This document shows positions 58-16,046 of a stretch of 64,000 bases of DNA, in pieces; position 1 is the stretch's first letter; each line of letters begins with the position of its first letter. Location of the stretch: contig NZ_JAANHS010000003.1 of NCBI RefSeq assembly GCF_011174775.1, positions 248,001 through 312,000 on the forward strand, read 5' to 3'. Origin of the DNA: Rhodobacter calidifons (GTDB lineage: Bacteria; Pseudomonadota; Alphaproteobacteria; Rhodobacterales; Rhodobacteraceae). The position numbers were made by a program, and so were the translations under genes. The notes under the pieces were generated by a model that did not search any database, was not told where the DNA came from, and saw only the letters and a list, made by a program, of their open reading frames with translations.

Positions 58-993
58 ATGCCGAAGTTCAAGCCTGCCCTGCTTGCCCTGCTTGCATCCA
101 GTGTCGCCGCACCGGCCCTGGCCGAATACCCCGACCGGCCGGTCAGCTTTGTCGTGCCCTTCCCGCCCGGCGACCTTGAGGACGTCCTGACCCGCATGAT
201 CGCCGAGGACTTCCAGGCGAAATACGGCGTCGCCGCGGCGGTGGTGAACAAGCCTTCGGAGGGCGGGCCCTTCCCCGGCGCGGCCGAAGTCGCGGCTGCC
301 CCGGCCGACGGCTACACCATCGGCTCATTCGTGGTGGACATCCCCGTGGTCGGCCCCGATGTCGGCGTCCCCGGCCTGAACCCCGACCCGTTCGAGCCGC
401 TGGGCATCTTCCTGACCTATCCCTTCGTCATCGCGACCTCGGCCGACAAGCCCTATTCCACGATGGCCGAACTTGCCGAACACTCGCAGTCCGACCCGCA
501 GCTTCTGGGCCATTTCGGCGCCTTCCTTCTGCCGACGCAGGCGACCTTTGCCGCGGCGAAGGAACTGGGCTTCGAATGGGGTGGCGAGGCGTCCGCAGGC
601 GCGCTGGACTGCAATTCGCTGGCCTCGGGCGACTTCGATGTCATCAACACGACGATCCAGCAGATTCTGCCCTGCCTTGACAGCGTGAAGATCCTGGCCA
701 CCGTCACCGAAGGGCCGATCTCGGTGGTGCCGGACGCGCCGACCCTGGCCTCGGTCGCGCCGGACCTGAACATCTCGCTGTGGAACGGGCTCTTTGTGCA
801 CAAGGACACGCCGGCCGATGTGCGCGAGAAGATCATCGCATCGGCGAAGGAAACCATGGCCTCGGCCCGTGCGCAGGAGCTGGCAGCGCAGACCGGCGCC
901 ATCGTCTACTGGATGGATGCCGAGGCAGCGAAGGCGCGCATCGCCTCGGACATTCAGGTGTCGGGCCGCATCGCCGGCATGCTGGAACAGTAG
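58..993 (+). CDS. Tripartite tricarboxylate transporter substrate-binding protein (TctC family)
   Basis: A 311-residue periplasmic binding protein that would capture the substrate and hand it to the TctB/TctA membrane pair. It starts with a Sec signal peptide (hydrophobic run, cleavage likely after PALA at about residue 22) and continues with the family opening YPDRPVSFVVPFPPG. The usual family motif is PGGxxD; here it is PGDLED. The ATG at 58 follows a good GGGAGG ribosome binding site. TctB begins 21 nt after the stop and TctA follows, so the three form one transporter. The family binds carboxylates, often citrate-like or aromatic acids; the substrate here is unknown. The downstream aminotransferase and kinase suggest an amino-acid-like or amino-alcohol-derived compound, which is inference. 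Confidence 0.9.
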   Translation: MPKFKPALLALLASSVAAPALAEYPDRPVSFVVPFPPGDLEDVLTRMIAEDFQAKYGVAAAVVNKPSEGGPFPGAAEVAAAPADGYTIGSFVVDIPVVGPDVGVPGLNPDPFEPLGIFLTYPFVIATSADKPYSTMAELAEHSQSDPQLLGHFGAFLLPTQATFAAAKELGFEWGGEASAGALDCNSLASGDFDVINTTIQQILPCLDSVKILATVTEGPISVVPDAPTLASVAPDLNISLWNGLFVHKDTPADVREKIIASAKETMASARAQELAAQTGAIVYWMDAEAAKARIASDIQVSGRIAGMLEQ

Positions 994-1014
994 GCGCCGG
1001 ACGGGATCGGCCGG

Positions 1015-1554
1015 ATGCGCGAAGGGCCCGAGGACCGCCCGCATGTCTTTCCCCAAGGCCGCCGGCCGGGAGAGATCCTGTTCGTGACGCTGACGATGGC
1101 AGTGGCGGTGGCGCTGCTGGCCGCGATCCCCTGGCAGACGACCTGGCTGCCGGGCAAGGGGCTGGCGGCGCAGCCGCGCTTCTGGCCCGCGCTGTCGCTG
1201 GGGGGCGTGGTGCTGTTCGGGTTGATGAATGCACTGTCGCGGCTGCGCGTGCCCCGCACGCCCGGCCGCTGGCAGGAGGCCGCGCTCTGGCTGCGCTCGC
1301 TGGAGTTCATCGGCTGGTACATGCTGTACGTCATTGCGATTCCGCTTATCGGCTACCTCGGCGCGACGCTGGCCTTCTGCACCGGGATCGCCCTGCGCAC
1401 CGGCTATCGCGGGCGCGCGGTCTGGATCGCGGCGGGCTTCGGCCTGTTCGTCGTCCTGTTCTTCAAGACCGGGATGAACGTGAAGATCCCCGCGGGCGCG
1501 ATCTACGACTTCGCCCCCGGCAGCCTGCGCTACATCCTGATCCGCTATTTCTGA
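1015..1554 (+). CDS. Tripartite tricarboxylate transporter small membrane subunit (TctB family)
   Basis: A 179-residue small membrane subunit with about four hydrophobic segments: VTLTMAVAVALLAAI, LSLGGVVLFGLM, FIGWYMLYVIAIPLIGYLG, and a C-terminal pair around AAGFGLFVVLFF. The order TctC-TctB-TctA is the standard one for this transporter class. TctB is poorly conserved, so the call rests on size, topology and position. The soluble N-terminus (about 20 residues, rich in charge) is likely cytoplasmic. The gene ends 7 nt before the TctA start, so translation is probably coupled. Confidence 0.85.
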   Translation: MREGPEDRPHVFPQGRRPGEILFVTLTMAVAVALLAAIPWQTTWLPGKGLAAQPRFWPALSLGGVVLFGLMNALSRLRVPRTPGRWQEAALWLRSLEFIGWYMLYVIAIPLIGYLGATLAFCTGIALRTGYRGRAVWIAAGFGLFVVLFFKTGMNVKIPAGAIYDFAPGSLRYILIRYF

Positions 1555-1561
1555 GGCGCCG

Positions 1562-3052
1562 ATGGAGAGCTTCCTTTCCGGCATCGAGCTTCTGGCCCGC
1601 TGGGACGTGATCGCCGCGCTGATCGTCGGTTCGATCGGCGGCGTTCTGGTCGGTGCCATGCCCGGCGTCGGCGCGGCGGTGGCCATCGCCATCGCCCTGC
1701 CAGTGACCTTTTCGCTGGAGCCCATCGTCGGGCTGACGCTGCTGCTGGGGATCTACGGATCCTCGATGTTCGGCGGGGCGATCCCGGCGATCCTGGTCAA
1801 CACGCCCGGAACGCCGGTGAACGCGCTGACCACCTATGACGGCTATCCGATGACCAGGCGCGGCGAGGCGCGGCGGGCGCTGAGCTTGGCCTATTCCGCC
1901 TCGTTCTACGGGGCCGTGCTGTCCATCTTCGCGCTGATCCTGCTGGCCCCCGTGCTGGCCAGGGTCGCGCCGATGTTCGGGGCACGGGAAATCTTCCTGG
2001 CGGCGCTTCTGGGCATCGTGCTGGTCGTCGTCACCCATCGCGGGCAGGTGCTGCCGGCGGCCATCCTCGCCTGTCTGGGCATCTTCCTGTCCACCATCGG
2101 GATCGAGCCCTCGGCCTATACCCAGCGCTACACCTTCGGCCAGTCCTGGCTGCAATCCGGCGTCGATCTGATCGTCGTGGTCCTTGGCCTTTTCGCCATC
2201 AGCCAGGCGCTGGTGCTGTTGATGAGCAAGGACAAGCGCGTCGCTCTGCCCCATGTCGAGAAGTCCGGCTTCTTCCGCCAGATGCGCGAGCTTTGGGTCT
2301 ATCGCCGCATCGCCTCGGTCGCCTCTGCCTTCGGGGTGGTCTGCGGCATGATCCCCGGCGTGGGCGAGTTCATGTCGCAATTCATGTCCTACAGCTATGC
2401 CCAGCGCACATCGAAGACGCCCGAGTTGTTCGGAAAGGGCAACCCCGAGGGGATCGTGGCGTCCGAGGCCGCAAACAACTCGGTCCCGGCGGCGGCGATG
2501 ATCCCGCTTCTGGCCCTGGGCATTCCGGGGGAAGAACTGACGGCGATGATGCTGGCGGTGTTCTATGTGCACAACGTGGTGCCGGGACCGCGACTTTTCG
2601 CCGAGCAGATGGACTTCATCTATGCGCTCTACATCAGCCTGTTCCTGCTGAACGTGATGGTGGTGGCGTTCCTGTTCTTCGCCACCCGCACGCTGATGAA
2701 GGTCATGCTGATCCCGAACCGTTTCCTGGGCATGATGATCCTGACCTTCAGCCTGATCGGCATCTACACGCTGCGCAATTCGCTGACCGACATCGCCATC
2801 GCATCGGCCTTCGGGGTCTTCGGCTTCATCCTCAAGCGGCTGGAATTGCCGACCTCGCCGATCATTCTGGGGATGGTGCTGGGCAAGCTGATGGAGGACC
2901 GGCTGCGCACCGCCATGGCCCGGGTGCGCGAGCCCTGGGATTTCATCGACCGGCCCATCGCCTTCGTCCTGTTCCTGATGATCCTCGCGGCCATCGGCGC
3001 GCAGGTCTGGACGGTGCTGAAGGCCCGCAGGCAAGGGGGTGCGGATGGCTGA
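1562..3052 (+). CDS. Tripartite tricarboxylate transporter large permease (TctA family)
   Basis: A 496-residue integral membrane permease, the usual size for TctA, with about 10-12 hydrophobic segments. Family marks include the early glycine-rich block GSIGGVLVGAMPGVGAA, the segment NTPGTPVNALTTYDGYPM, and the second repeat GMIPGVGEFMSQF with EAANNSVPAAAMIPLLALGIPG. It uses an ion gradient and the TctC receptor to import a carboxylate. The last codons overlap the start of the downstream aminotransferase gene by 8 nt, which ties transport to the following catabolic genes. Confidence 0.95.
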   Translation: MESFLSGIELLARWDVIAALIVGSIGGVLVGAMPGVGAAVAIAIALPVTFSLEPIVGLTLLLGIYGSSMFGGAIPAILVNTPGTPVNALTTYDGYPMTRRGEARRALSLAYSASFYGAVLSIFALILLAPVLARVAPMFGAREIFLAALLGIVLVVVTHRGQVLPAAILACLGIFLSTIGIEPSAYTQRYTFGQSWLQSGVDLIVVVLGLFAISQALVLLMSKDKRVALPHVEKSGFFRQMRELWVYRRIASVASAFGVVCGMIPGVGEFMSQFMSYSYAQRTSKTPELFGKGNPEGIVASEAANNSVPAAAMIPLLALGIPGEELTAMMLAVFYVHNVVPGPRLFAEQMDFIYALYISLFLLNVMVVAFLFFATRTLMKVMLIPNRFLGMMILTFSLIGIYTLRNSLTDIAIASAFGVFGFILKRLELPTSPIILGMVLGKLMEDRLRTAMARVREPWDFIDRPIAFVLFLMILAAIGAQVWTVLKARRQGGADG

Positions 3053-4322
3053 CCTGATCGCACGGCGCCGGGCGCTTCTGGGGCCCAATGTCCCGACCTT
3101 CTACGACGACCCGGTGCATGTGGTGCGGGGCGAGGGGGTCTGGCTCTGGGATGCCGAGGGGCGGCGCTATCTCGACTGCTACAACAACGTGGCGCATGTC
3201 GGGCATTGCAACCCGCGCGTCGTGCGGGCGATCTGCGATCAGGCGGCGACCCTGAACACCCACACGCGCTATCTGCACGAGGGCATCCTGGACTATGTGG
3301 AGCGCCTGACCGCGACCTTCGACGATCCGCTGACCACCGCGATCCTGACCTGCACCGGGTCCGAGGCGAACGACATCGCGCTGCGCATGGCGGAAGGTGT
3401 CACCGGCAAGCGCGGGATCATCGCCACCGATGCGACCTATCACGGCAATACCGCGCTGGTCAGCCATCTGTCGCGGTCGAACGTGCCCGAGGTGGGTTTC
3501 GGCCTCGGCCAGTATCTGCGCCATGTCGAGGCGCCCGACAGCTACCGCATCCCCGATCCCGACGGCCAGCGGTTCGCGGCGCAGGTGGAGGCGGCCATCG
3601 CCGATCTGGAACGGTCGGGCATCGGTTTCGCCGCGCTGATCCTGTGTCCCCTGTTCCTGAACGAAGGCTTCCCCACGCAGGCGGAAGGCTGGCTGCGCCC
3701 CGCCGCCGAAGCGGTGCGGCGCGCGGGCGGGCTGTTGATCTGCGACGAGGTGCAGTCCGGCTTCGGGCGCTCGGGCAGCCATTTCTGGGCGCATCAGCGG
3801 CAGGGCGTGGTGCCGGACGTGGTGACCCTGGGCAAGCCGATGGGCAATGGCCACCCGGTCGCGGGCCTGGTGACAACGCCCGGGATCATGGCGCGTTTCC
3901 GCAGCGCGTTCCGCTATTTCAACACCTTCGGCGGCAATCCCGTGTCCTGTGCTGCGGCGATGGCGGTGCTGGACGAGGTGCAGGAGCGCGACCTGCAAGC
4001 CAATGCCGCGCGGATCGGCCGGCTGGCTGCGGTCCGGCTGTCGGAGTTGCAGCAGAAGTATCCCGTGATCGGCGATGTCCGGCAATCCGGCATGGTCTTC
4101 GGTGCGGAATTCGTGCTGGACCGCGACACGAAGGCCCCCGCCTCGGCCTATGCCGACCGCGTGGTGAACCGGCTGCGCCAGCGCGGGGTGCTGTTGTCAA
4201 GGCTTGGCCGGCACAAGAACACGCTGAAGATCCGCCCGCCGATGCCCTTTGGCGAAGAGCATCTGGACCTTCTTGTCACCACGCTGGACGCGGTTCTGGC
4301 CGAAACGCCGGTGTCGGAATGA
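3045..4322 (+). CDS. Class III PLP aminotransferase, AGXT2L/phospholyase-like branch
   Basis: A 425-residue fold-type I PLP enzyme. The block RRYLDCYNNVAHVGHCNPRVV near the N-terminus and TCTGSEANDIALR resemble ethanolamine-phosphate and phosphohydroxylysine phospholyases (AGXT2L1/AGXT2L2) more than ordinary omega-aminotransferases. The PLP Schiff-base lysine is K264 in TLGKPMGNGHPVAG, and the cofactor Asp lies in LLICDEVQSGFGR. I chose the ATG at 3045, overlapping the TctA stop; a GTG at 3039 is possible. Its stop overlaps the start of an APH-fold kinase (ATGA), so a kinase plus phosphate-eliminating lyase pair is plausible: phosphorylate an amino alcohol, then remove phosphate and ammonia. 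A plain transaminase is the alternative. Confidence 0.85.
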   Translation: MADLIARRRALLGPNVPTFYDDPVHVVRGEGVWLWDAEGRRYLDCYNNVAHVGHCNPRVVRAICDQAATLNTHTRYLHEGILDYVERLTATFDDPLTTAILTCTGSEANDIALRMAEGVTGKRGIIATDATYHGNTALVSHLSRSNVPEVGFGLGQYLRHVEAPDSYRIPDPDGQRFAAQVEAAIADLERSGIGFAALILCPLFLNEGFPTQAEGWLRPAAEAVRRAGGLLICDEVQSGFGRSGSHFWAHQRQGVVPDVVTLGKPMGNGHPVAGLVTTPGIMARFRSAFRYFNTFGGNPVSCAAAMAVLDEVQERDLQANAARIGRLAAVRLSELQQKYPVIGDVRQSGMVFGAEFVLDRDTKAPASAYADRVVNRLRQRGVLLSRLGRHKNTLKIRPPMPFGEEHLDLLVTTLDAVLAETPVSE

Positions 4323-5278
4323 CCGATCCGCTGGCCGAGGCGCTGGCGCTCTGGGGCCTGGCCGGGGCCGACTGCACCTTCGTCGCCGGGCGCGAGAACC
4401 GGGTCTGGCGGGTCCGCTCGGCACGGGGTGACCACGCCCTGCGGCTGCGCCGACCCGGTTACCGCGACGAAGCCGAGCTTCGGTCGGAACTCGACTGGCT
4501 GGCGGCGCTGGACCGGGCCGGGTTGCAGGTGCCACGCCCCCTGCCCTCGCGGAGCGGGCGGCTGATGGAGCGGGTGGGCGCAGGCTTTGCCGATGTGCTG
4601 GGCTGGCTTCCCGGTCGCCCGCTGGGGCAAAGCCGCGTGCCGCTGGTGCTGGAGGACCGGACGGGCACCTATCGCGCGCTTGGGGCCGAGATCGCGCGGC
4701 TGCATGCCGCCTGCGACGCCTGGACGCCACCGCCGGGCTTTCGCCGCTGCCGCTGGGATGCCGAGGGTCTCGTGGGCGAGGCGCCGGTCTGGGGCCAGTT
4801 CTGGGACAACCCGACGCTGGACCCGGCCGACCGCACCCTGTTCCTGCGCCTGCGCGACGCGGCGCGGTCCAGGCTGGCGGGCACGACGGCGGATTTCGGC
4901 CTGATCCATGCCGATCTGGTGCGGGAAAACGTTCTGCTGGACGGCGGAACGATCCGCCTGATCGACTTCGACGACGGCGGCTTCGGCTATCGGCTGTTCG
5001 ACCTGGCCACAGTCCTCTTGAAGTCCCTGGACGAGCCGGATCACCCGGCCCTGCGCGCGGCGCTGATCGCGGGCTATCATGAGTTGCGGCCGCTGGACCT
5101 GTCGCTTCTGGACCTTTTCATCGCCTTGCGCGCGCTGACCTATGTCGGCTGGATCGTGCCCCGGATGGCGGAACCCGGCGGGGCCGCGCGCAACGCGCGT
5201 TTCGTGGCCGAGGCGCGCGCACTTTGCACGGGCTGGCTACAGGACAATACTGCACGCACAGGGGGAGGCGCGGCATGA
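4319..5278 (+). CDS. APH-fold small-molecule kinase (phosphotransferase family)
   Basis: A 319-residue member of the aminoglycoside/choline/hydroxylysine kinase fold. The catalytic loop LIHADLVRENVLLDGG gives HxDxxxxN, and IRLIDFDDGGFGYRLFDLA gives the metal-binding Asp and the following conserved segment. The N-terminal lobe has a basic strand HALRLRRPG in place of a typical ATP-lysine strand. It starts at 4319, overlapping the aminotransferase stop by 4 nt, and its own stop overlaps the next gene in the same way. Paired with an AGXT2L-like enzyme, the best guess for the substrate is an amino alcohol or hydroxylated amino acid, as for hydroxylysine kinase. A resistance role is unlikely in this setting. 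Confidence 0.8.
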   Translation: MTDPLAEALALWGLAGADCTFVAGRENRVWRVRSARGDHALRLRRPGYRDEAELRSELDWLAALDRAGLQVPRPLPSRSGRLMERVGAGFADVLGWLPGRPLGQSRVPLVLEDRTGTYRALGAEIARLHAACDAWTPPPGFRRCRWDAEGLVGEAPVWGQFWDNPTLDPADRTLFLRLRDAARSRLAGTTADFGLIHADLVRENVLLDGGTIRLIDFDDGGFGYRLFDLATVLLKSLDEPDHPALRAALIAGYHELRPLDLSLLDLFIALRALTYVGWIVPRMAEPGGAARNARFVAEARALCTGWLQDNTARTGGGAA

Positions 5279-6519
5279 CGAAAACCATCCTGGTCATCGG
5301 CACGTTCGACACCAAGGCGGACGAGCTTGACTATCTGATCGGCCGGATCAAGGCGCAGGGCGGCGCGGTGCTGGCGATGGATGTCAGCATCCTGGGCGAG
5401 GCGAAGGTTCCGGTCGATGTGACCAAGCACGAGGTGGCCGCAGCGGCGGGCGAGACCATCGCCGGCCTGATCGCGCTTGGCGAGGAAGGCGAGGCCTTCG
5501 AACGGATGAGCACGGGCGCAGCCGCCCTGACCCGGCGCCTCCATGCGGAGGGGCGCTTTGACGGCATGATCGCCCTGGGCGGCACCATGGGCACCGACCT
5601 TGCGCTGGATTGCGCCCAGGCCCTGCCGCTGGGGGTGCCGAAATACATCGTCTCGACCGTCGCCGGATCGCCGCTGATCGCGCCGGACCGGATGGCGGCG
5701 GATGTGCAGTTCATCCTCTGGGCCGGGGGGCTTTACGGGCTGAATCCGCTCTGCAGATCCTCGCTCAGCCAGGCGGCGGGGGCGGTGCTGGGCGCGGCGC
5801 AGGCGGTGGAGCCGCCCGCCTTCGACCGGCCGCTGATCGGGATGACCTCGCTGGGGTCGTCCTGCCTGAAATACATGAAGCGGCTGCACCCGGAACTGAC
5901 CCGGCGCGGCTATGACATCGCGGTGTTCCACACCACCGGCATGGGCGGGATGGCCTTCGAGCGGCTGGCCCTGGCCGGTCATTTCGCCTGCGTGATGGAC
6001 TTCTCGGTGCAGGAATTCGTCAACGCGGAAGGCGGCTCGCTGGTCAGCGCCGGGGCGGACCGGCTGACGGGCGCGGGGCGCAGCGGCACGCCGCAGATGG
6101 TGGCGCCGGGGGCGGCGGACATTCTGGACCTTGCGGGCTGGCAGGAGATGCCGGACCGCTTCCGCGACCGCCCCTGCCATGTGCACAACCGGCTGATCAA
6201 GAGCGTGGCCTTCACCCCCGACGAACGCCGCGCGCTGGCCGTCGCCATGGCCGAACGGCTGGCCGGGGCGAAGGGGCCGACCCATGTCTTCCTGCCCGCG
6301 GGCGGGATCGAAGAATGGGACAGGCCCGGCGAGGCCGCGCATGACCCCGAGGGCCTGGCCGGTTTCATCGCGGCGGCCGAGGCGGCGCTGCGCGGCCGGG
6401 TGGACCTGACCGTGCTGGACTGCCACATCAACGACGCAGCCTTCTGCGACGCGGTGCTGGCACGGCTGGACGCCTGGGTTGCCGCGGGGATCGTGCCGCC
6501 CGGTAAGGCCGCGGCATGA
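5275..6519 (+). CDS. Tm-1-like ATP-binding / UPF0261 family protein
   Basis: A 414-residue member of the UPF0261 (Tm-1-like ATP-binding domain) family. It shows the family opening ILVIGTFDTKADELDYLI, the central GMIALGGTMGTDLALDCAQ and KYIVSTVAGSPLI, and a C-terminal Rossmann-like half with FHTTGMGGMAFERL. The biochemical role of bacterial members is not settled. They are commonly followed by a TIM-barrel phosphoenolpyruvate-hydrolase-like protein, which is absent here; an SDR follows instead. The ATG at 5275 overlaps the kinase stop (ATGA) and is preceded by GGGGGAGG, so the start is secure. The gene belongs to the transporter-aminotransferase-kinase operon. Confidence 0.85.
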   Translation: MTKTILVIGTFDTKADELDYLIGRIKAQGGAVLAMDVSILGEAKVPVDVTKHEVAAAAGETIAGLIALGEEGEAFERMSTGAAALTRRLHAEGRFDGMIALGGTMGTDLALDCAQALPLGVPKYIVSTVAGSPLIAPDRMAADVQFILWAGGLYGLNPLCRSSLSQAAGAVLGAAQAVEPPAFDRPLIGMTSLGSSCLKYMKRLHPELTRRGYDIAVFHTTGMGGMAFERLALAGHFACVMDFSVQEFVNAEGGSLVSAGADRLTGAGRSGTPQMVAPGAADILDLAGWQEMPDRFRDRPCHVHNRLIKSVAFTPDERRALAVAMAERLAGAKGPTHVFLPAGGIEEWDRPGEAAHDPEGLAGFIAAAEAALRGRVDLTVLDCHINDAAFCDAVLARLDAWVAAGIVPPGKAAA

Positions 6520-7307
6520 GCGGGCGGTTCACCGGCAAGGTGGCGCTGGTCTCGGGCGGGAGCACCGGGATCGGGGCGGCAACCGCCCGGAGGCTGGCGC
6601 AGGAAGGCGCGCAGGTCGTGGTCATGGGCCGCCGGCAGGCGCAGCTTGCGGCGGTCGCCGGGCCGATCGGGGCCGCGGTCTGCACCGGCGATGCCGCCGA
6701 CCCAACCGGGGCTGCGGCGGCGGTCGCTCTGGCCTGCGACCGTTTCGGCGGGCTGGATGTCGTCGTCGCCAATGCCGGCGGCCACGGCTTTGCCACGCTG
6801 GCCGAGACCTCGGATGCCGACTGGGAAGCCGCCCGCCGGTCCAATCTCGACACGGCAGTGATCCTGCTGCGCGCGGCCTTGCCCGAGCTTCAGCGCCGCC
6901 AGGGCGCGATCGCGGTCACCGCCTCGATCGCCAGCCTTGCCGCTCCGGCCGGCGCCTTCGGCTATACCGTCGCCAAGCATGCCCAGATCGGCCTCGTCCG
7001 GTCCATCGCGCGGGATTTCGGGCGGCAGGGCGTGCGCTGCAATGCGGTCTGCCCCGGCTGGGTGACGACCGAGATGGCCGATGCCGAGATGGACGAGCTT
7101 TGCGCCCGGCAGGGCCTGGCCAGTCGCGAGGCCGCCTATGCCCTCGTCACCCGCGACGTGCCCCTTGGCCGCCCCGCGCATCCCGACGAGGTCGCGGCGG
7201 CGATTGCCTTCCTCTGCTCGGCCGATGCCGCGATGATCACCGGCGCGGTGCTGACGGTGGATGGCGGTTCAACCATCGTCGATGTCCCGACGCTCGCCTT
7301 CGGCTGA
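6516..7307 (+). CDS. Short-chain dehydrogenase/reductase (classical SDR)
   Basis: A 263-residue NAD(P)-dependent SDR. Glycine motif SGGSTGIGAATARRL lies near residue 13, the NAG-type motif is VVANAGG, the catalytic Ser sits in VTASIAS, and the Tyr/Lys pair in GYTVAKHA. After the dinucleotide-binding strand comes GRR rather than an acidic residue, which favours NADP(H), although this is only suggestive. It is the last gene of the operon, joined by an ATGA overlap, and would oxidise or reduce a pathway intermediate. Its 3' end overlaps the convergent EamA gene by 39 bp. Confidence 0.9.
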   Translation: MSGRFTGKVALVSGGSTGIGAATARRLAQEGAQVVVMGRRQAQLAAVAGPIGAAVCTGDAADPTGAAAAVALACDRFGGLDVVVANAGGHGFATLAETSDADWEAARRSNLDTAVILLRAALPELQRRQGAIAVTASIASLAAPAGAFGYTVAKHAQIGLVRSIARDFGRQGVRCNAVCPGWVTTEMADAEMDELCARQGLASREAAYALVTRDVPLGRPAHPDEVAAAIAFLCSADAAMITGAVLTVDGGSTIVDVPTLAFG

Positions 7308-8174
7308 GGCGGCGCGGGCATCCTGTTTGCGGGTCAGGGCAAAGACGCCCGATCCCACCACCAGCGCCGCACCGATCCAGGTGGCCAGGTCAGGACGTTC
7401 GCCGAACAGGACCATGGCCAGCACCATGGCGAAGACCAGCCGGGTATAGCGGAAGGGCGTCACGGCCGAGACCTCTCCGGTCCGCATCGCATGGCTCAGC
7501 GCGTGATATCCCAGCATGCCGAAGGCCGTGCCGGCCGCCAGCCGGGAAAGGTCGGCCAGGTCGGGCAGCCTGGCTCCGCCGCTGACCGCAAGCAGGATCG
7601 CCCCGGCCAGCGCCAGCATCGCAAAGCCCAGCGCGCCGAGCTGCCGGTTCGACAGGCCCTCCGGAGCAGCGCGCGTGGCCAGGTCGCGGCCGGCAAAGCC
7701 AAGAAGGCCGACCACCGCCAGCAGCGACAGGGCCGAGAATTCCGCCCCCGGCCGCAGGATGACCATGACGCCGGCAAAACCGGCCAGAACCGCCAGCCAG
7801 CGGCGAAGGCTCACCCTTTCGCGGAAGACCAGCGCCGCCCCGGCCACCACGACAAGCGGCGTGGCTTGCAGGATCGCCGAGGTGGTGGACAGCGCGGTCA
7901 GCGTGATGGCAAGACCGTAGAACAGCCGACCCGTCACCTCGAACGCGCTGCGGATCAGCATGGGGCGCGACAGGAAGGCGGCGGGCAGGATCGGCTCGCC
8001 CCGGCGCGCGGCCATGGCGGCGAAGACCAGCATCCCGCACAGGCCGATGCTGAACAGGACCTGGCCCAGCGGCAGCGCCGCAGCGGCGGCCTTGACGAAG
8101 ACATCCTCGACGGCGAAGCCCGCCATGGATACAGTCATGTAAAGCGCGCCGCGTTGGTTGTCGGTCAGCGCCAA
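7269..8174 (-). CDS. EamA/DMT-family transporter
   Basis: About ten hydrophobic segments in 301 residues make this a two-repeat EamA (drug/metabolite transporter) protein. I prefer the TTG at 8174 because it sits five bases after a strong GAGGAGG site and gives the usual family opening (LTDNQRGALYMTVSMAGF); a GTG at 8201 lies further upstream. The tail is charged (RKQDARAASAEGERRDIDDG). It lies downstream of a proline-racemase-family gene on the same strand, so amino-acid or cyclic imino-acid transport is possible. The 3' ends of this gene and the convergent SDR overlap by 39 bp. Confidence 0.85.
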   Translation of the reverse strand: MALTDNQRGALYMTVSMAGFAVEDVFVKAAAAALPLGQVLFSIGLCGMLVFAAMAARRGEPILPAAFLSRPMLIRSAFEVTGRLFYGLAITLTALSTTSAILQATPLVVVAGAALVFRERVSLRRWLAVLAGFAGVMVILRPGAEFSALSLLAVVGLLGFAGRDLATRAAPEGLSNRQLGALGFAMLALAGAILLAVSGGARLPDLADLSRLAAGTAFGMLGYHALSHAMRTGEVSAVTPFRYTRLVFAMVLAMVLFGERPDLATWIGAALVVGSGVFALTRKQDARAASAEGERRDIDDG

Positions 8175-8256
8175 GGCCGCCTCCTCGAGCCCTTCCGGCA
8201 CGCGTCGGTGGTCAGCGAGGAGTGGACGCAGTCCTCGACGAGCGGGTGCGGAAGCC

Positions 8257-9285
8257 TCACCGCGCGCCCCAGGTGTCGCTCAGCCGATAGCCCTGCGGCC
8301 AGGGATCGTCAGGGTCCAGCATGTGCTGGTGCACCCCGGTGATCCAGGCGCGGCCCGAGATTTCCGGCAGGATCGCGTCGATCTCGCCCAGCTTCGCGGC
8401 CCCGACGATCCGCCCCGCGAACTCACCCCCGATCAGCGACCGCGCCCGCAGCACCTCGCCCGGGCCGATCTGGCCCCGTGCGGCGAGGAGGGCAAGCCGC
8501 GCCGAAACCGCCGTCCCGGTGGGCGAGCGGTCGATCTTGCCGGGACGGATCGAGACGGCGTGCCGCGTCTCCCATCCGTCGGCGACGCGGACCAGCGGAC
8601 CGGCGAAAAGACAGAAAGAGAAATGCCGCCAATCCGGGTTTTCAGGATGGTGGAAGCCCAACTGTTCGTCGGCTGCCCTGGTGATCCGGACCCCCAGCCG
8701 CGCCATCGCATGGGCCTCATCCGGCGCATGTGTGAACCCGACCGCCTGGGCATCGACCACGACGAAACTGTCGGCCCCATAGGCCGTGTCCACCGTCAGG
8801 CGACCCAGCCCGGGGACATCCAGCGGCACGCCCAGCCGGTCGGCGAAGGACGGAAAATTGCGGACATGGATACGCTCGGCCTTTCCGGCGCGGCAATCGG
8901 CACGGACTGTCAAAAGCCCCCCAGGCGCTTCCAGGACCAGCTCCGTCACCGGCTCGGTCATCGGAATGATCCCGCAGTCCAGCAGCACGGTCGCCACGCA
9001 GATCGCGTTCGACCCCGACATCGGCGGGTTGTCCTCGGGCTCCATGATGATGAACCCCATCTGCGCGCGGGGGTTCTTGGGCGGCACCAGCAGGTTCACA
9101 TGCCGGAACACGCCGCCGCGCGGTTCGTTCAGGACGAAGTTCCGCAGGGTCTGGTCGCGCCAGAGCGCCTGGCGCATTTCCCACAGCGTCGCGCCGGGCG
9201 GAGGGGCGACGCCGCCGACGATGACATCGCCGACCTCGCCCTCGGCATGGGCCGAGATGACATGGATGGCCTTGATGCTGCGCAT
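8257..9285 (-). CDS. Proline racemase-family protein (hydroxyproline epimerase / 3-hydroxyproline dehydratase type)
   Basis: A 342-residue member of the proline racemase superfamily, which epimerises or dehydrates proline derivatives with two active-site residues. The first block is MSGSNAIC (Ser90) and the second [12 protein letters not shown] (Thr256). In racemases both positions are Cys; 4-hydroxyproline epimerases are Cys/Cys or Ser/Cys, and trans-3-hydroxyproline dehydratases Cys/Thr. A Ser/Thr pair has no thiol at either position, so function cannot be assigned confidently. I start at the ATG at 9285, since the upstream sequence is a palindromic repeat. The dapA gene precedes it and an EamA transporter follows. 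Confidence 0.8.
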
Positions 9286-9320
9286 GGGCGGACCTTGCTT
9301 GGGCTGGGCGGAAATGACAA

Positions 9321-9345
9321 GCGCCCCGCCGGTCGGACGGGGCGC
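9321..9345. terminator. GC hairpin between dapA and the racemase-family gene
   Basis: GCGCCCCG at 9321-9328 pairs with CGGGGCGC at 9338-9345 around a nine-base loop. It abuts the TTCGAA palindrome element at 9341-9393 and shares its outer bases, so the two structures would compete. It probably takes part in ending or attenuating dapA transcription. Confidence 0.4.
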
Positions 9346-9393
9346 AAATCTTTTCGAAAAGATTTGCAAATTCCTTCGAAGGAATTTGGCGCC
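9341..9393. repeat. Tandem TTCGAA palindromes with outer GC stem, copy 1
   Basis: Two perfect 22-bp palindromes abut: half-sites CAAATCTTTTC (9345-9366) and CAAATTCCTTC (9367-9388), each followed by its exact reverse complement. An outer stem GGCGC (9341-9345) / GCGCC (9389-9393) encloses them, giving a possible three-way junction. It lies directly after the dapA stop, and copies 2 and 3 also follow gene ends, so transcript termination or 3' end protection is likely. Confidence 0.75.
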
Positions 9394-10266
9394 TCAGATC
9401 AGCCCGGCGTGCTGCATCGCGGCCTTGATCCTGGCCTTGGTGCCGTCCGTCAGCCCTACCAATGGCAGGCGGACCTCTTCCGAACAGAGACCGAGCAGCG
9501 ACAGGCCATACTTCGCCCCCACAAGACCGGGCTCGATGAAGATCGCCTCGTGCAGAGGCATCAGCTTGTCCTGATACTCCAGCGCCTTGGCATAATCGCC
9601 GCGCAGGGTCGCCTCCTGAAACTCCGCGCAGAGACGCGGGGCAACGTTGGCGGTGACGCTGATGCAGCCCACCCCGCCATGCGCGTTGAAGCCCAGTGCC
9701 GTCGCGTCCTCGCCCGAAAGCTGGATGAAATCCGCCCCGCAGGCGGCACGCTGCTGGCTCACGCGTTCGATCTTGCCGGTCGCGTCCTTGACGCCGATGA
9801 TCCGGGGCAGTTTCGCCAACTGGCCCATCGTTTCCGGCGTCATGTCGATCACCGACCGGCCGGGAATGTTGTAGATGATGATCGGCAGCTGGCAGCAGTC
9901 GTGCAGCGCGGTGTAATGCGCGATCAGGCCGGCCTGCGTCGGCTTGTTGTAATAGGGTGTCACCACCAGAGCCGCATCCGCCCCGACCTTCTCGGCGTGG
10001 CGGATCAGGCTGATGCCTTCCACGGTGTTGTTCGACCCGGCGCCCGCGATCACCGGAACGCGGCCTGCGACGGCAGCCACGACCTCTTCGATCACCCTCT
10101 GGTGTTCCGCGTGGCTCAGCGTCGGGCTTTCGCCCGTCGTCCCCACCGGCACGATCCCGTGGCTGCCCTCGGCGATGTGCCAGTCCACGAGTTTCTTCAG
10201 CGTCACCAGATCGAGCTCGCCGTTCTTGAACGGCGTCACCAGGGCAGGAAGGGACCCTCTGATCAT
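9394..10266 (-). CDS. dapA: 4-hydroxy-tetrahydrodipicolinate synthase
   Basis: Condenses pyruvate with aspartate semialdehyde in the lysine/diaminopimelate pathway. The 290-residue length is standard. The protein opens with [10 protein letters not shown], has [14 protein letters not shown], the Tyr of TPYYNKP, and the Schiff-base lysine in [10 protein letters not shown] chose the ATG at 10266 because AGGAG precedes it and the opening fits the family. The close match to canonical DapA and the neighbouring slt and smpB favour the biosynthetic enzyme over a catabolic paralogue, even though a hydroxyproline-type enzyme lies downstream. The transglycosylase gene is divergent. Confidence 0.93.
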
Positions 10267-10400
10267 GACGCTTCTCCTGTGATGGGCGGGATTGCCCGAA
10301 ACCGGGTTCCTCTTAGCGGCTGGCAGACCCAAAGCCAAGTCTTGCGCGCTGACGCAAGTGTGGGTTGTCCACCGGCGCCGCGTCAGGCAGATTCAGCGGC

Positions 10401-12335
10401 ATGAGCAGCAGAACAATGATCCGGGCGCTGGTCCTGGCCCTTGGCCTCCAGACGCTTCCGGCGACAGCAGATACGACACAGGCGATGCGGACAGCGCTGG
10501 AGCTGGCCGCGGGAAAGGATTTCGACGGCGCGCTGGCCGTCGCGCCCTCGGGGGTCGGGCGCGACGTGATCGAATGGCAGCGCCTGCGGGCGGGCGGCGG
10601 GCGGCTGGGCGATTACGAGGCCTTCCTGCAACGCCGCCCGGACTGGCCGGGCCTGCCGCTTCTGCGCGAAAAGGGCGAAGAGGCCGTCGCGCGCTCGACC
10701 GATCCGGCCCGCATCATCGCCTGGTTCGAGGTCGGTCTGCCCGTGACCGGGCGCGGTGCCATCGCCTATGTCCGCGCGCTTCAGGCCCAAGGCCGGGCGG
10801 CAGAGGCCGAGACCGAGGCGATGCGAGCCTGGTCCAGGCTTGCCTTCTCGCCCGAGCAGGAAGCCGAGATGATCGGTCTTGCGCCCGAAGCGGTGGGTTT
10901 CGTCCATGAACTGCGTCTGGACACTCTCCTGTGGGAAGGCCGGACGAAAGAGGCGACGCGGATGCTGTCGCGCGTGCCCGAGGATCTTCAGGCCCTCGCC
11001 CGCGCGCGGATCGCGCTGCAAGAACAGGGCAAGGGTGTCACCGGCCTGATCGAGGCGGTGCCGAAAAGGCGCGCGGGCGATCCGGGCCTGGCCTATGACC
11101 GGTTCATCTGGCGGATGAAGAAGGATCTGTACGACGAGGCGACCGAGCTGATCCTCGAGCGTTCAAAATCCGCCGAAAGCCTCGGCCGCCCGCAGGCCTG
11201 GGCAGAACGCCGGGCGCTTCTGGCGCGCTGGCTGATGCGGCAGGGCCGCGCGAAAGAGGCCTACCGGGTCGCCGCGAACCACCATCTGCCGACCGACAGC
11301 GGTGCCTCGGCCTATGCCGATCTGGAGTTTCTGGCGGGCTTCATCGCGCTGCGGCGGCTGAACGATCCGGCGACAGCCGAAAGGCATTTCCAGCATCTCC
11401 TTGCCGGGGTTTCGACGCCGATCAGCGTGGCGCGGGCGCACTACTGGATCGGCCGCGCAGAAGAGGCGGCGGGGCGCGACGGCAGCGCCAGCTACCGGGC
11501 GGCGGCAAGGCACCAGACGGCCTTCTACGGGCTGCTGGCCGCCGAACGGCTGGGCCTGTCGCTGGACGCAGGCCTTCTCGCCCGGCCAGCCACCCCGGAC
11601 TGGCGCAGCGCCGGGTTCACCCGGTCCTCCGTGCTGGCTGCGGCCGAGCTTCTGCGCAAGGCCGGCGATCGCAGCCTGGCCAGGCGCTTCCTTCTGCACC
11701 TCGGCGAAAGCCAGGACGCGACGGGACTTGCCCAGATGGCCGACATGGCGCTGGCCTGGGGCGACCCGAACATGGCACTCCTGATCGCAAAACAGGCCGC
11801 CGAACGCGGGCTGATCCTGCCGCATGCCTATTACCCGATCCCCGATTTCGTGCCGGACGGGCTGAAGGTCAGCCGCGCGCTGGCCCTGTCCATCGCCCGG
11901 CGGGAAAGCGAATTCGACCCCACCGCCCGGTCCTCGGCCGATGCGCGCGGGCTGATGCAGGTCCTGCCCGGAACGGCCAGGCTGATGGCGGGAAAACTGG
12001 GCAAGGAGTTCGACGCAGGCAAGCTGACCTCGGACCCGGCCTACAACGTGACGATGGGCTCGGCCTATCTGGCCGAAATGGCGGCCGAGTTCGGCCCCTC
12101 GATCGCGCTGATCGCCTCGGGCTACAATGCCGGGCCAGGCCGCCCGCGGCGCTGGATCACCGAATTCGGCGACCCGAGGCGTCCCGACGTGGATGTCGTG
12201 GACTGGGTCGAGACGATCCCCTTCGCCGAGACGCGGACCTATGTGATGCGGGTGGCCGAGGGCGTGGTGATCTACCGGGCCAAGCTGAAGGGCGCGGTCG
12301 GGCCGGTCAGGATCACCAGCGAGCTGAAAGGCTGA
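10401..12335 (+). CDS. slt: Soluble lytic murein transglycosylase (Slt family)
   Basis: A periplasmic enzyme that cleaves peptidoglycan with formation of anhydromuramyl ends. The 644-residue protein has a signal peptide (MIRALVLALGLQTLPATA), a long alpha-helical superhelical domain, and a C-terminal SLT domain at about residues 490-610. In that domain RRESEFDP carries the catalytic Glu, followed by ARGLMQVLPGTA, YNVTMGSAYLAEM and ALIASGYNAGPGR. I chose the ATG at 10401; an ATG at 10416 would begin right at the signal peptide. It ends 6 bp from the convergent potassium channel gene. Confidence 0.92.
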   Translation: MSSRTMIRALVLALGLQTLPATADTTQAMRTALELAAGKDFDGALAVAPSGVGRDVIEWQRLRAGGGRLGDYEAFLQRRPDWPGLPLLREKGEEAVARSTDPARIIAWFEVGLPVTGRGAIAYVRALQAQGRAAEAETEAMRAWSRLAFSPEQEAEMIGLAPEAVGFVHELRLDTLLWEGRTKEATRMLSRVPEDLQALARARIALQEQGKGVTGLIEAVPKRRAGDPGLAYDRFIWRMKKDLYDEATELILERSKSAESLGRPQAWAERRALLARWLMRQGRAKEAYRVAANHHLPTDSGASAYADLEFLAGFIALRRLNDPATAERHFQHLLAGVSTPISVARAHYWIGRAEEAAGRDGSASYRAAARHQTAFYGLLAAERLGLSLDAGLLARPATPDWRSAGFTRSSVLAAAELLRKAGDRSLARRFLLHLGESQDATGLAQMADMALAWGDPNMALLIAKQAAERGLILPHAYYPIPDFVPDGLKVSRALALSIARRESEFDPTARSSADARGLMQVLPGTARLMAGKLGKEFDAGKLTSDPAYNVTMGSAYLAEMAAEFGPSIALIASGYNAGPGRPRRWITEFGDPRRPDVDVVDWVETIPFAETRTYVMRVAEGVVIYRAKLKGAVGPVRITSELKG

Positions 12336-12341
12336 GACGGA

Positions 12342-12782
12342 TCAGTCCTTGTGCCGCACTTCCAGCTGCGTCAGCCGGACCTGGCGCAGCGCCTCGACCA
12401 GAAGCGCGGTCAGCAGGCCAAAGCTGAGGAACCCGTTCACCGCCGCCATGGCCGCAAGGATGCGCCAGTCCTCCGGCGGCACCACATCGCCCAGGCCCAG
12501 CGTGGTAAAGGCGACCAGCGCGAAATAGGTGGCCTCCTCCAGGCTGGCAAAGGCCCCCAGCGTGAACATCGCAAAGGCCCAGATCCAGACACCCGCCGTC
12601 ACCACCGCCAGCACCCATAGACCGACCGCGACCAGCATCGCCAGAAGCTTCAGCCGCTGCGGCGGCCGCAGCAGCCAGGGATGGACCCGGCGGAACCCGA
12701 CTTCCAGGACCAGGGCCGCGCTGGCCATGACCAGAATGTTGAGGATCAGCAGAACCGACCCCAAGGCAATCTGTCCGAACAT
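12342..12782 (-). CDS. Small two-transmembrane potassium channel protein (Ion_trans_2 type)
   Basis: A 146-residue membrane protein with a pore loop carrying the selectivity filter TTLGLGDVVPP, the TxGxGD form found in prokaryotic K+ channels. Hydrophobic helices precede (IALGSVLLILNILVMASAALVL and LAMLVAVGLWVLAVVTAGVWIWAF) and follow (AAMAAVNGFLSFGLLTALLVEAL) the pore, so three or four membrane helices are likely, with no regulatory RCK domain. The pore preamble SLEEATYFALVAF fits the family. It is convergent with slt and divergent from smpB, 49 bp away. Confidence 0.85.
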   Translation of the reverse strand: MFGQIALGSVLLILNILVMASAALVLEVGFRRVHPWLLRPPQRLKLLAMLVAVGLWVLAVVTAGVWIWAFAMFTLGAFASLEEATYFALVAFTTLGLGDVVPPEDWRILAAMAAVNGFLSFGLLTALLVEALRQVRLTQLEVRHKD

Positions 12783-12831
12783 GTCGCCCCTTCTGGACTA
12801 AGCCTGCACCAAGGCTTATCTCACCGCGATC

Positions 12832-13311
12832 ATGGTGGCAAAGTCCGATCCGAACTCCAGGCTGATCGCCGAGAACCGGCGCGCGCGTTTCGATTACCAT
12901 ATCGAAAGCGACCTCGAGGCCGGCATCGTGCTTTTGGGCTCCGAGGTGAAGAGCCTGCGGCAGGGCGGCGCGAACATCGCGGAAAGCTATGCCTCGGTCG
13001 AGGGCGGCGAGCTGTGGCTGATCAACAGCTACATCGCCCCCTATCTTCAGGCCAGGACCTTCGGGCATGAGGAACGGCGGCGGCGCAAGCTTCTGGTTTC
13101 GAAGAAGGAACTATCGCGGCTGTGGTCGGCGGTGGGGCGCGAGGGCATGACCATCGTTCCGATGAAAATGTATTTCAACGACCGCGGCGTCGTGAAGCTG
13201 AAGCTTGGCATCGCCAAGGGCAAGAAGCTGGCCGACAAGCGCGAGACCAGCGCCAAAAGGGACTGGGAACGCGACAAGGCCCGGCTGCTGAAACAGAACT
13301 CCCGCGGCTGA
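12832..13311 (+). CDS. smpB: SsrA-binding protein SmpB
   Basis: Binds tmRNA and delivers it to stalled ribosomes in trans-translation. At 159 residues it is the normal length. Recognisable blocks are [49 protein letters not shown], and the basic C-terminal tail [19 protein letters not shown], which folds in the decoding centre. The start could be the ATG at 12832 or the GTG one codon later. The dapA-slt-smpB neighbourhood is typical of related Rhodobacteraceae. Confidence 0.97.
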
Positions 13312-13442
13312 ACTTGCACTGATCACGCATTCATTGCCGGATTCGCCGGTTTCTGGCAGTCTGTTCCTTAACGGACAGGAAGTCCGGGGGAAAAGCCGGG
13401 ACAACCCGGTCAGGGAACCGGCGAAGAGGGAAGGTAAGCGGT

Positions 13443-13727
13443 ATGGGTATGGAACTGATCATCCAGATCATTGCGGGCCTCATCGGCGGCAATGCGGCGG
13501 GTGCCGGGCTCAAGACTCTCAGTCTCGGGACGGCGGGCAACTCGGTCGCGGGCGCGGTCGGTGGCGGACTTGGCGGTGTTCTGATGGGCATGCTCGGCGG
13601 TGACGCCGGGGCTGCGGCTGCCAACCTGGACCTCGGTACGATCATCCAGTCTGTCGCGGGCGGCGGCATCGGTGGTGCCGTGCTGACGGCGATCGTGGGC
13701 ATGCTGAAGAAGGCCATGGCGAAGTAA
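13443..13727 (+). CDS. Small glycine-rich membrane-like protein, unknown function
   Basis: A 94-residue protein of low complexity rich in Gly, Ala and hydrophobic residues. It has two or three glycine-zipper-like stretches ([54 protein letters not shown]) that could form membrane hairpins or oligomers. There is no clear signal peptide and the C-terminus is basic (KKAMAK). A GGGAAGG site precedes the ATG. I do not recognise a named family. The 130-bp leader contains small hairpins, and a strong GC hairpin follows the gene. Confidence 0.7.
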
Positions 13728-13740
13728 TTCGCCCTGGAAC

Positions 13741-13758
13741 GGGGGCCCATGCGCCCCC
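13741..13758 (+). terminator. GC hairpin after the Gly-rich protein gene
   Basis: GGGGGC (13741-13746) pairs with GCCCCC (13753-13758) around a six-base loop, 14 bp after the stop codon. There is no U-tract, so termination strength is uncertain. Confidence 0.5.
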
Positions 13759-13818
13759 GCGCCGCTTGCGCCCCGTGCGCCCGCGCGGATATATCCTGGT
13801 CAACTCCGGGAGGCCCGC

Positions 13819-14682: not shown

Positions 14683-14803
14683 CGCCTGCCAACGAAAAGT
14701 GGGAACCGGTTTTCGCGCCCGGCAGGCGACCACTTGCCTTCGCCGCTTGCCGTTGCCGTGGCGTTATGGCACTGGGCGGGCGTCCAGAACCCCGGGAAAT
14801 CCC

Positions 14804-15979: not shown

Positions 15980-16026
15980 CCGGACCGCCAACCACAAGCC
16001 TCCCGAATCGGGACTCGCATCGGTCC

Positions 16027-16046
16027 GGTCCGGTTCACACCGGACC
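16027..16046. terminator. GC hairpin downstream of the aminotransferase
   Basis: GGTCCGGT (16027-16034) and ACCGGACC (16039-16046) form a perfect 8-bp stem with a TCAC loop, 48 bp after the stop. The rest of the 234-bp spacer up to the Hint gene turns AT-richer near 16130-16200, as expected for a promoter of that gene. Confidence 0.45.

What the first reader, a model, noticed from the sequence alone, without database searches (positions are those of the whole stretch)
58..7307. Uncharacterised catabolic operon: carboxylate transporter, phospholyase-like aminotransferase, APH-fold kinase, Tm-1-like protein, SDR
Seven genes run in one direction; from TctA onward neighbours overlap by 4-8 nt. 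The aminotransferase resembles amino-alcohol-phosphate phospholyases and the next gene is a hydroxylysine/ethanolamine-type kinase fold. That predicts a route: uptake, phosphorylation of an amino alcohol or hydroxylated amino acid, elimination of phosphate and amine, then oxidation by SDR. The Tm-1-like protein lacks its usual partner, so this set may define a new use for it.
Basis: partly seen in the sequence, partly recalled or inferred. Interest (0 to 1): 0.7.

Follow-up and report, generated by a model that had tools for sequence, protein, structure and literature searches.

The report
Aromatic-amine catabolism operon with phospholyase
This bacterial operon looks like part of a modular gene island for eating aromatic amines such as tyramine, dopamine and probably their hydroxylated cousins (octopamine, noradrenaline), in which a kinase and a phosphate-removing lyase known from ethanolamine breakdown seem to have been put to a new use.

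Summary
The seven co-directional genes are real, at the stated places, with 8/4/4/4-nt overlaps. The aminotransferase-like protein is closer to two solved amino-alcohol-phosphate phospholyases (384 and 348 bits) than to any other solved class-III enzyme (180); its partner's best solved match is an aminopropanol kinase. A kinase-phospholyase pair is well supported. The substrate guess changes. The operon is half of a divergent unit (IclR, aldehyde dehydrogenase, HAD hydrolase, amine transaminase), and many relatives sit beside homoprotocatechuate (hpa) or homogentisate ring-cleavage genes, DOPA-decarboxylase-like genes or N-demethylase-like genes. In 394 genomes the pair's lyase (AT) and HpaD lie within 20 kb in 16 of 54 genomes holding both (0.6 expected), and the Tm-1-like gene co-occurs with HpaD (104 of 130). 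Best reading: an aromatic-amine catabolic island, the pair serving beta-hydroxylated phenethylamines (octopamine/noradrenaline type). The Tm-1-like protein belongs to the core, not to the pair; its nearest solved relative binds acetovanillone. The aromatic context is well supported; the exact substrate is inferred.

The parts
58..993 (+). TctC, solute-binding protein of a tripartite tricarboxylate transporter
   Evidence: PF03401 56 bits over cut-off 27; ORF
1015..1554 (+). TctB, small membrane subunit
   Evidence: PF07331 41 bits over cut-off 29.1; start codon not certain
1562..3052 (+). TctA, large membrane subunit
   Evidence: PF01970 428 bits
3045..4322 (+). class-III PLP enzyme, probable amino-alcohol-phosphate phospholyase (here called AT); PLP lysine K264
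   Evidence: PDB 5g4i phospholyase 384 bits, 6tor ethanolamine-phosphate phospho-lyase 348 bits, next best 180 bits; NCBIfam best PRK06148, below its cut-off; K264 invariant in 15 orthologues
4319..5278 (+). APH-fold small-molecule kinase, probable amino-alcohol kinase; HADxxxxN and DFDD motifs invariant
   Evidence: PF01636 101.5 bits; PDB best 6ef6, E 9.7e-32, titled aminopropanol kinase, fold TM 0.83; invariant H197, D199, N204, D216, D218, D219 in 26 sequences
5275..6519 (+). UPF0261 / Tm-1-like protein, core member of the aromatic-amine clusters; possible aryl-binding or aryl-OH-phosphorylating protein (inferred)
   Evidence: PF06792 and PF23189 over cut-off; NF002676 560.9 vs cut-off 556; AF2 model pLDDT 92.6, best PDB match 9mpy, UPF0261 protein with bound acetovanillone
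6516..7307 (+). SDR oxidoreductase; possible ketone/alcohol interconversion of the amino alcohol (inferred)
   Evidence: PF13561 176 bits; PDB best 2,3-butanediol dehydrogenase E 3.4e-37

Best explanation
The operon is one half of a divergent unit (the other half, upstream of the window, is IclR regulator, aldehyde dehydrogenase, HAD hydrolase and amine transaminase) that belongs to a modular island for aromatic-amine catabolism. Core: an uptake system (TctCBA here, an APC permease elsewhere), the second aminotransferase (AT2) turning phenethylamine-type amines (tyramine, dopamine) into arylacetaldehydes, and the aldehyde dehydrogenase giving arylacetates, which go to homoprotocatechuate or homogentisate ring cleavage. 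The kinase-phospholyase pair in the window is an added entry for beta-hydroxylated phenethylamines (octopamine, noradrenaline, after N-demethylation synephrine): the kinase phosphorylates the benzylic OH, Ar-CH(OH)-CH2-NH2 to Ar-CH(OPO3)-CH2-NH2; the PLP enzyme eliminates phosphate and the enamine hydrolyses to ArCH2CHO + NH3, the same aldehyde. The SDR may make or invert the carbinol. Shown by sequence: enzyme families, kinase motifs, linkage statistics. Inferred: every reaction and the substrate.
For: AT closer to phospholyases than to transaminases; kinase within 300 nt of AT in 75 of 80 named loci and elsewhere in the locus in 1 more. HpaD within 20 kb of AT in 16 of 54 genomes holding both, 0.6 expected. 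AT within 20 kb of the Tm-1-like gene: HpaD in 30 of 35 genomes; AT not so linked: 24 of 82; no AT: 67 of 277. At least one of HpaD-H, homogentisate genes, AADC or the FAD monooxygenase in 29 of 80 named loci. Gene orders differ: hpa genes between Tm1 and AT-APH on one strand in L119; between AT and APH in L162; Agrobacterium plasmid with IclR-Tm1-HAD-AT2-AT-APH then hpaR and the hpa operon. DOPA-decarboxylase-like gene (7xin 344 bits for the L125 copy) in 6 of 80; one core cluster without AT (L223, 2963-17608) joins AADC, AT2, ALDH, Tm1, hpa genes and HpaB over cut-off. DMGDH-like gene in 12 of 80. AT2's best solved match is an omega-transaminase, 415 bits. Own genome has hpaF-E-D-G-H.
Against: No substrate or activity is known. 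In the window's genome the hpa operon is on another contig (C3); the immediate neighbour is the homogentisate set. 51 of 80 named loci show none of the ring-cleavage, AADC or FAD-monooxygenase genes in the fetched stretch (some stretches are short). TctCBA transporters usually carry carboxylates (recalled). Tm1-ALDH-AT2-hpa clusters also occur without the pair, so the pair is accessory and the beta-hydroxy step is deduced from enzyme chemistry. A clade of the same AT-APH pair beside arfB (7 of 131 AT rows) has none of the searched aromatic genes in the fetched loci and is nested among the others in a quick tree, so the substrate may not be aromatic. 31 of 131 rows had neither Tm1, hpa nor arfB in the locus; 7 rows of the 131 are distant paralogues. 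Co-occurrence tests are not corrected for phylogeny.
Confidence: 0.55

Rival explanations
1. The pair acts on a small, non-aromatic amino alcohol (ethanolamine, 1-amino-2-propanol) or hydroxylated amino acid (hydroxylysine, 4-amino-3-hydroxybutyrate), and its place beside aromatic genes reflects shared mobility or regulation.
For: Closest solved relatives are ethanolamine-phosphate and aminopropanol enzymes; TctC and APC transporters fit small amino acids (recalled); the arfB clade has no aromatic neighbours in the fetched loci.
Against: Recurrent linkage to arylacetate ring cleavage in several gene orders, in Rhodobacterales and Rhizobiaceae; the AT group linked to Tm-1 tracks HpaD (30 of 35 vs 24 of 82).
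Confidence: 0.25
2. The class-III enzyme is an ordinary transaminase for an aromatic or other amine and the APH-fold protein phosphorylates something else (for example the aromatic hydroxyl).
For: Class-III enzymes with known function are mostly transaminases (PMC8154272, section 13 read); the cluster is amine-related.
Against: Gap of about 170-200 bits between the phospholyases and other solved class-III enzymes; a separate amine transaminase (AT2) is already in the unit; kinase within 300 nt in 75 of 80 loci.
Confidence: 0.08
3. The pair has the proposed lyase chemistry but on an aromatic beta-hydroxy amino acid (phenylserine, beta-hydroxytyrosine), imported as a carboxylate by TctCBA, before or without decarboxylation.
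For: Carboxylate-type transporter; decarboxylase genes in some clusters.
Against: Class-III enzymes generally act on amino groups not next to a carboxylate (PMC8154272); the decarboxylase was seen in only 6 of 80 named loci and not in the window's own locus.
Confidence: 0.1

Closest known systems
Ethanolamine-phosphate phospho-lyase family (PDB 5g4i Arthrobacter, 6tor human; organism of 5g4i recalled)
   Same: Highest sequence similarity over nearly the whole length (384 and 348 bits); class-III PLP fold with conserved lysine
   Different: Context is aromatic ring cleavage; substrate untested; dedicated kinase gene next to it
Aminoacetone/aminopropanol microcompartment pathway of Mycobacterium smegmatis (kinase PDB 6ef6; organism and pathway recalled)
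   Same: Kinase is the best solved match; same logic of SDR, amino-alcohol kinase, phospholyase, aldehyde dehydrogenase (pathway layout recalled)
   Different: No shell protein (PF00936) found in the genome; aromatic neighbours, TctCBA transporter, Tm-1-like protein
Tyramine/dopamine catabolism to homoprotocatechuate (hpa/hpc pathway; recalled)
   Same: hpa genes, AADC-like gene, amine transaminase, ALDH and in one locus HpaB
   Different: Transaminase rather than amine oxidase as entry (inferred); added kinase-phospholyase and UPF0261 protein
Acetovanillone / hydroxyacetophenone catabolism (Hpe pathway PMC9618137; Saro_1862 UPF0261 structure 9mpy)
   Same: UPF0261 protein next to a HAD hydrolase in an aromatic setting
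   Different: No biotin carboxylase here; the Rhodococcus kinase HpeHI is related to CreHI and phenylphosphate synthase, not described as UPF0261

Membership tests
Amino-alcohol-phosphate phospholyase (ETNPPL-like class III) | Closer in sequence to characterised phospholyases than to class-III transaminases | tested here: met
   384 and 348 bits vs 180 for dialkylglycine decarboxylase and 173 for the best GabT in the PDB
Amino-alcohol-phosphate phospholyase (ETNPPL-like class III) | PLP-binding lysine conserved | tested here: met
   K264 invariant in 15 sequences; that it is the PLP lysine follows from the alignment to class-III enzymes and recall
Amino-alcohol-phosphate phospholyase (ETNPPL-like class III) | Releases phosphate and ammonia from a phosphorylated vicinal amino alcohol | not testable with these tools
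   Needs enzyme assay
Aminopropanol-kinase-like APH enzymes | APH fold and catalytic motifs; nearest to 6ef6 | tested here: met
Aminopropanol/aminoacetone microcompartment | BMC shell proteins | tested here: not met
   PF00936 not found in own genome; control rings in 2 of 14 genomes
Homoprotocatechuate meta-cleavage | HpaD over the curated cut-off in the same genome | tested here: met
   Own genome 400.4 bits vs 321.4; 20 of 22 chosen genomes; control over cut-off in 3 of 14
4-hydroxyphenylacetate route via HpaBC | HpaB (PF03241) present | tested here: not met
   0 of 22 incl. own, control 4 of 14; wider set 13 of 57: 7 of 40 with Tm1 + HpaD, 6 of 17 with HpaD only
Tm-1-like UPF0261 + TBST pair | Both UPF0261 domains over cut-off | tested here: met
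Tm-1-like UPF0261 + TBST pair | TBST partner (PF09370) in the genome | tested here: not met
   not found in own genome; found in 1 of 22 genomes searched
[quoted passage not shown]
   AT 198 bits vs cut-off 525

The most novel reading that the evidence does not exclude
The UPF0261/Tm-1-like protein is an aryl-OH kinase and the HAD hydrolase its matching phosphatase: the phenolic or catecholic OH is phosphorylated while the side chain is worked on, so that turning the benzylic OH of octopamine-type amines into a leaving group does not give a quinone methide and arylacetaldehydes do not condense with amines; the kinase-phospholyase pair then acts on the ring-phosphorylated amine. This would give bacterial UPF0261 proteins a function and a doubly phosphorylated route for octopamine and noradrenaline.
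Probability: 0.18. Interest if true: 0.82.

Novelty: new variant of a known kind. Interest (0 to 1): 0.62.

Why it matters
It would assign genes to bacterial breakdown of octopamine/noradrenaline-type amines (enzyme activities were described decades ago; recalled, no paper read), extend the small group of class-III PLP lyases to aromatic substrates, and tie the uncharacterised UPF0261 family to aromatic catabolism by co-occurrence, genome context and a ligand-bound structure. Each point is directly testable with a few purified proteins. The islands occur in marine Rhodobacterales and on rhizobial and Agrobacterium plasmids (record titles), so they bear on degradation of animal and plant signalling amines.

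Tried and rejected
Early idea that the substrate is 4-amino-3-hydroxybutyrate or carnitine-derived (from the N-demethylase-like neighbours in L036): dropped when hpa, homogentisate and AADC genes were found beside other orthologues. It survives only within the first rival.

Idea that HpaB absence proves a catechol substrate: weakened. 0 of 22 in the first set, but 7 of 40 Tm1+HpaD genomes in the second set have HpaB, one of them inside the cluster (L223). Comparison 7 of 60 vs 6 of 17, p = 0.03; the 60 are the 40 plus 20 of the first set, which was chosen by me, not drawn.

Apparent APH-Tm1 gene fusion in L131: an artefact of my coordinate extension; a stop codon separates them.

Idea that HpeHI (hydroxyphenylethanone kinase) is a UPF0261 protein: the paper relates HpeHI to CreHI and phenylphosphate synthase and does not hold the word UPF0261. 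Whether Saro_1862 phosphorylates acetovanillone could not be read here (the SYK-6 paper that I recalled is not held).

Literature: UPF0261 (5 papers listed), phospholyase + hydroxylysine + kinase + bacteria (1), Tm-1-like + operon (2), phospho-lyase + ethanolamine + aminotransferase (11), phospholyase + Arthrobacter aurescens (0), octopamine + phenylethanolamine + lyase + Pseudomonas (3), aminopropanol kinase + microcompartment (0), Tm-1-like ATP-binding (0), two sets of biogenic-amine and homoprotocatechuate terms (79 found, 30 listed; one found, 20 listed). No listing (titles and starts of abstracts) describes this cluster. Open-licence papers only. Read further: PMC8154272 (abstract, sections 13 and 18, passages), PMC9618137 (abstract, passages), PMC5028733 (passages).
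Full report
OBSERVATION. The window begins at base 248001 of contig C33 of a 3.62-Mb draft genome. Seven + strand genes fill 58-7307 and from tctA onward overlap by 8, 4, 4 and 4 nt, which fits translational coupling. Reading 8 kb further upstream (L002) shows that the operon is half of a divergent unit: on the minus strand an IclR-type regulator, an aldehyde dehydrogenase, a HAD-type hydrolase and a second class-III aminotransferase (AT2) (families), then MarR, maleylacetoacetate isomerase and homogentisate dioxygenase genes, and further on fumarylacetoacetase-like, metallo-beta-lactamase-fold and FAD-monooxygenase genes (L213). MarR, MAI, HGD, FAH and MBL were named by eye at first; the HGD, MAI, FAH and MBL names agree with the annotation of the similar set in L239. 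The FAD monooxygenase passes NCBIfam PRK08132.

THE PAIR. The class-III PLP enzyme (AT) matches two solved phospholyases best: 5g4i at 384 bits and ethanolamine-phosphate phospho-lyase 6tor at 348 bits, against 180 bits for the next enzyme. NCBIfam's best models are PRK06148 and PRK06149, long models in which AT matches the C-terminal part, below their cut-offs; the kinase matches the N-terminal part of PRK06148 weakly. K264 is invariant in 15 orthologues. The APH-fold protein's best solved match by sequence is 6ef6 (E 9.7e-32), and by fold (AF2 model, pLDDT 96.3) again 6ef6, titled microcompartment-associated aminopropanol kinase (TM 0.83). Its HAD and DFDD motifs are invariant in 26 sequences. 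The kinase lies within 300 nt of AT in 75 of 80 named loci; in L162 it is 5 kb away, and in L161, L166, L171 and L172 none was found at >=40% identity. No microcompartment shell protein was found in the genome. Activity itself was not testable.

CONTEXT. In 101 relatives (own genome included) an AT match at E <= 1e-60 was found in 48 genomes; many of these are paralogues of about 50% identity or less. In a family sample of 394 genomes AT at E <= 1e-140 occurs in 117, the Tm-1-like protein (Tm1) at E <= 1e-60 in 130 and HpaD at E <= 1e-100 in 121. The tool scored only the best few candidates per genome, so copies can be missed. Places were copied by hand into a script and recounted. Tm1 and HpaD co-occur in 104 genomes (26 Tm1 only, 17 HpaD only, 247 neither; odds ratio 58). 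AT and Tm1 lie within 20 kb in 35 of 66 genomes holding both, Tm1 and HpaD in 22 of 104, AT and HpaD in 16 of 54; 0.75, 1.19 and 0.62 would be expected by chance placement in 3.5 Mb. When AT is linked to Tm1, HpaD is in 30 of 35 genomes; when AT is not linked, in 24 of 82, near the level of genomes without AT, 67 of 277. None of these tests corrects for phylogeny, though the 394 genomes come from 393 genera.

GENE ORDERS. I compared 131 AT rows (124 of the orthologous group, 7 distant paralogues; 12 loci taken for duplicates left out): Tm1 is in the locus of 86, at least one hpa gene in 35, arfB in 7, none of these in 31. The arrangements differ, so one inherited accident does not explain them. 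In L119 the order on one strand is TctC-B-A, ALDH, Tm1, HpaF-E-D-G-H, AT, APH; in L162, a bin titled Granulosicoccaceae, HpaE-D-G-H lie between AT and APH. On an Agrobacterium plasmid IclR-Tm1-HAD-AT2-AT-APH is followed by hpaR and the hpa operon through hpaI, with an APC permease and an aldehyde dehydrogenase upstream. HpaD, HpaB and HPPD representatives pass their curated cut-offs; the HpaH representative is just below (342 vs 351.5) and the HpaF and HpaG ones are well below theirs. The AADC representative matches DOPA decarboxylase 7xin best at 344 bits, but passes no NCBIfam cut-off. Locus L223, without AT, holds GabD, HpaH, HpaG, AADC, HpaD-E-F, HpaR, Tm1, ALDH, IclR, AT2 and HpaB within 2963-17608, which reads as tyrosine or tyramine to homoprotocatechuate. 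The Sinorhizobium fredii plasmid L239 holds AT2, HAD, TctCBA, ALDH, DMGDH-like (73%), Tm1 and OYE-like (67%) genes and the homogentisate set, without AT-APH.

HOW IT MOST LIKELY WORKS. Shown: families, motifs, linkage. Inferred: an uptake system brings in an aromatic amine. AT2, whose best solved match is an omega-transaminase at 415 bits and which passes NCBIfam PRK07481, a model without named function, makes the arylacetaldehyde from amines without a beta-hydroxyl. Where the amine carries a beta-hydroxyl (octopamine, noradrenaline; synephrine after N-demethylation in the DMGDH/OYE variants), the kinase phosphorylates it and the PLP enzyme eliminates phosphate; hydrolysis of the enamine gives the same arylacetaldehyde. 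The aldehyde dehydrogenase, nearest to PuuC/KauB-type enzymes and below every NCBIfam cut-off shown, makes the arylacetate, which enters the hpa or the homogentisate route. The own genome carries hpaF-E-D-G-H on contig C3 (L214). In the same genus the gene sets can lie in one island: G007 C74 with AT at 48404 and HpaD at 66281, and G019 C10 with AT at 61831 and HpaD at 78974.

THE TM-1-LIKE PROTEIN. It is part of the core, not of the pair: it occurs with TctCBA or APC permease, ALDH, AT2 and hpa in loci without AT, and G020 of the same genus has AT2, ALDH and Tm1 but no AT at E <= 1e-140. Its AF2 model (pLDDT 92.6) matches 9mpy best (E 2.9e-29, TM 0.52, the two domains lying differently), whose title is Saro_1862, a UPF0261 domain protein with bound acetovanillone. 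Relatives of that protein at 67% and 53% identity lie in operons of Tm-1-like protein, biotin carboxylase parts and HAD hydrolase on Sphingobium and Pseudomonas plasmids. The Rhodococcus acetovanillone pathway has a kinase, a carboxylase and a phosphatase (PMC9618137; abstract and passages read). So UPF0261 may stand in the kinase's place and HAD in the phosphatase's; this is inference, and the Rhodococcus kinase is of another family. The TBST partner of Tm-1 (co-evolution reported in PMC5028733, passages read) is not found here.

AGAINST. The window's own cluster borders homogentisate, not hpa. HpaB is absent from 22 chosen genomes but present in 7 of 40 further Tm1+HpaD genomes, so whether the ring is a catechol from the start is open. 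The arfB clade (7 of 131 rows) carries the same pair without the searched aromatic neighbours and is nested in the tree (FastTree, local supports only). 31 of 131 rows had none of Tm1, hpa or arfB; 51 of 80 named loci lack ring-cleavage genes in the fetched stretch.

NOVELTY. Kinase-phospholyase pairs are known for small amino alcohols, and aromatic-amine routes to homoprotocatechuate are known (both in part recalled); their combination, and UPF0261 in the same unit, appeared in no listing of ten searches of an open-licence library. Hence a new variant of a known kind, with one bolder reading left open.

Noticed in passing
L048 (G000:C5), APH 7873-8895 and AT 8892-10205: Second kinase-phospholyase-like pair in the window's genome (AT 47%, APH 27-28% identity to the window's), beside moaA- and phoU-like genes (names by eye); related AT genes of about 47-51% identity occur in many genomes of the genus.
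   Followed up: partly
L039-L044, L207: AT (with APH where the stretch reaches it) next to arfB-like, and in some PiT- and NUDIX-like, genes (names by eye), with none of the searched aromatic genes: possibly the same chemistry in housekeeping use.
   Followed up: partly
L093, L098-L100, L103, L111, L123, L133, L143, L145, L146, L160, L162, L188, L194, L202, L205, L206, L216: P450, glutamine-synthetase-like, class-I amidotransferase and ferredoxin-like genes, in varying sets, beside the clusters; could be gamma-glutamyl protection of an amine during a P450 step (ferredoxin by eye).
   Followed up: partly
L036, L118, L138, L140, L142, L147, L149, L151, L155, L174, L177-L179, L184, L239: Variants with a DMGDH/GcvT-like FAD protein and, in some, a FadH/OYE-like protein around Tm1: likely N-demethylation of methylated aromatic amines; one (L239) is on a plasmid typed conjugative, with homogentisate genes.
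   Followed up: partly
L215 10919-15517 (G007:C74): Second Tm1 copy (64% to the window's) with DMGDH-like and IclR-like genes right behind hpa genes, roughly 20 kb from the first cluster.
   Followed up: no
L236 4936-10321, L237 8983-14465: UPF0261 + biotin carboxylase + HAD operons on Sphingobium and Pseudomonas plasmids, probably hydroxyacetophenone catabolism (function inferred).
   Followed up: partly
G004:C31 8441-9699 (L047): AT orthologue split over two overlapping frames in a draft genome; sequencing error or pseudogene.
   Followed up: no
window 7269-8201 (-), 8257-9369 (-), 9394-10338 (-), 10365-12335 (+): Neighbours downstream: EamA transporter; proline-racemase-like, DapA-like and lytic-transglycosylase-like proteins (by eye).
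   Followed up: no
plasmid hits: 44 of 114 plasmid records with a close Tm1 relative are Pseudosulfitobacter; the 28 such rows listed are plasmids of about 210.9 kb with 57.8% identity each, so near-identical records.
   Followed up: no
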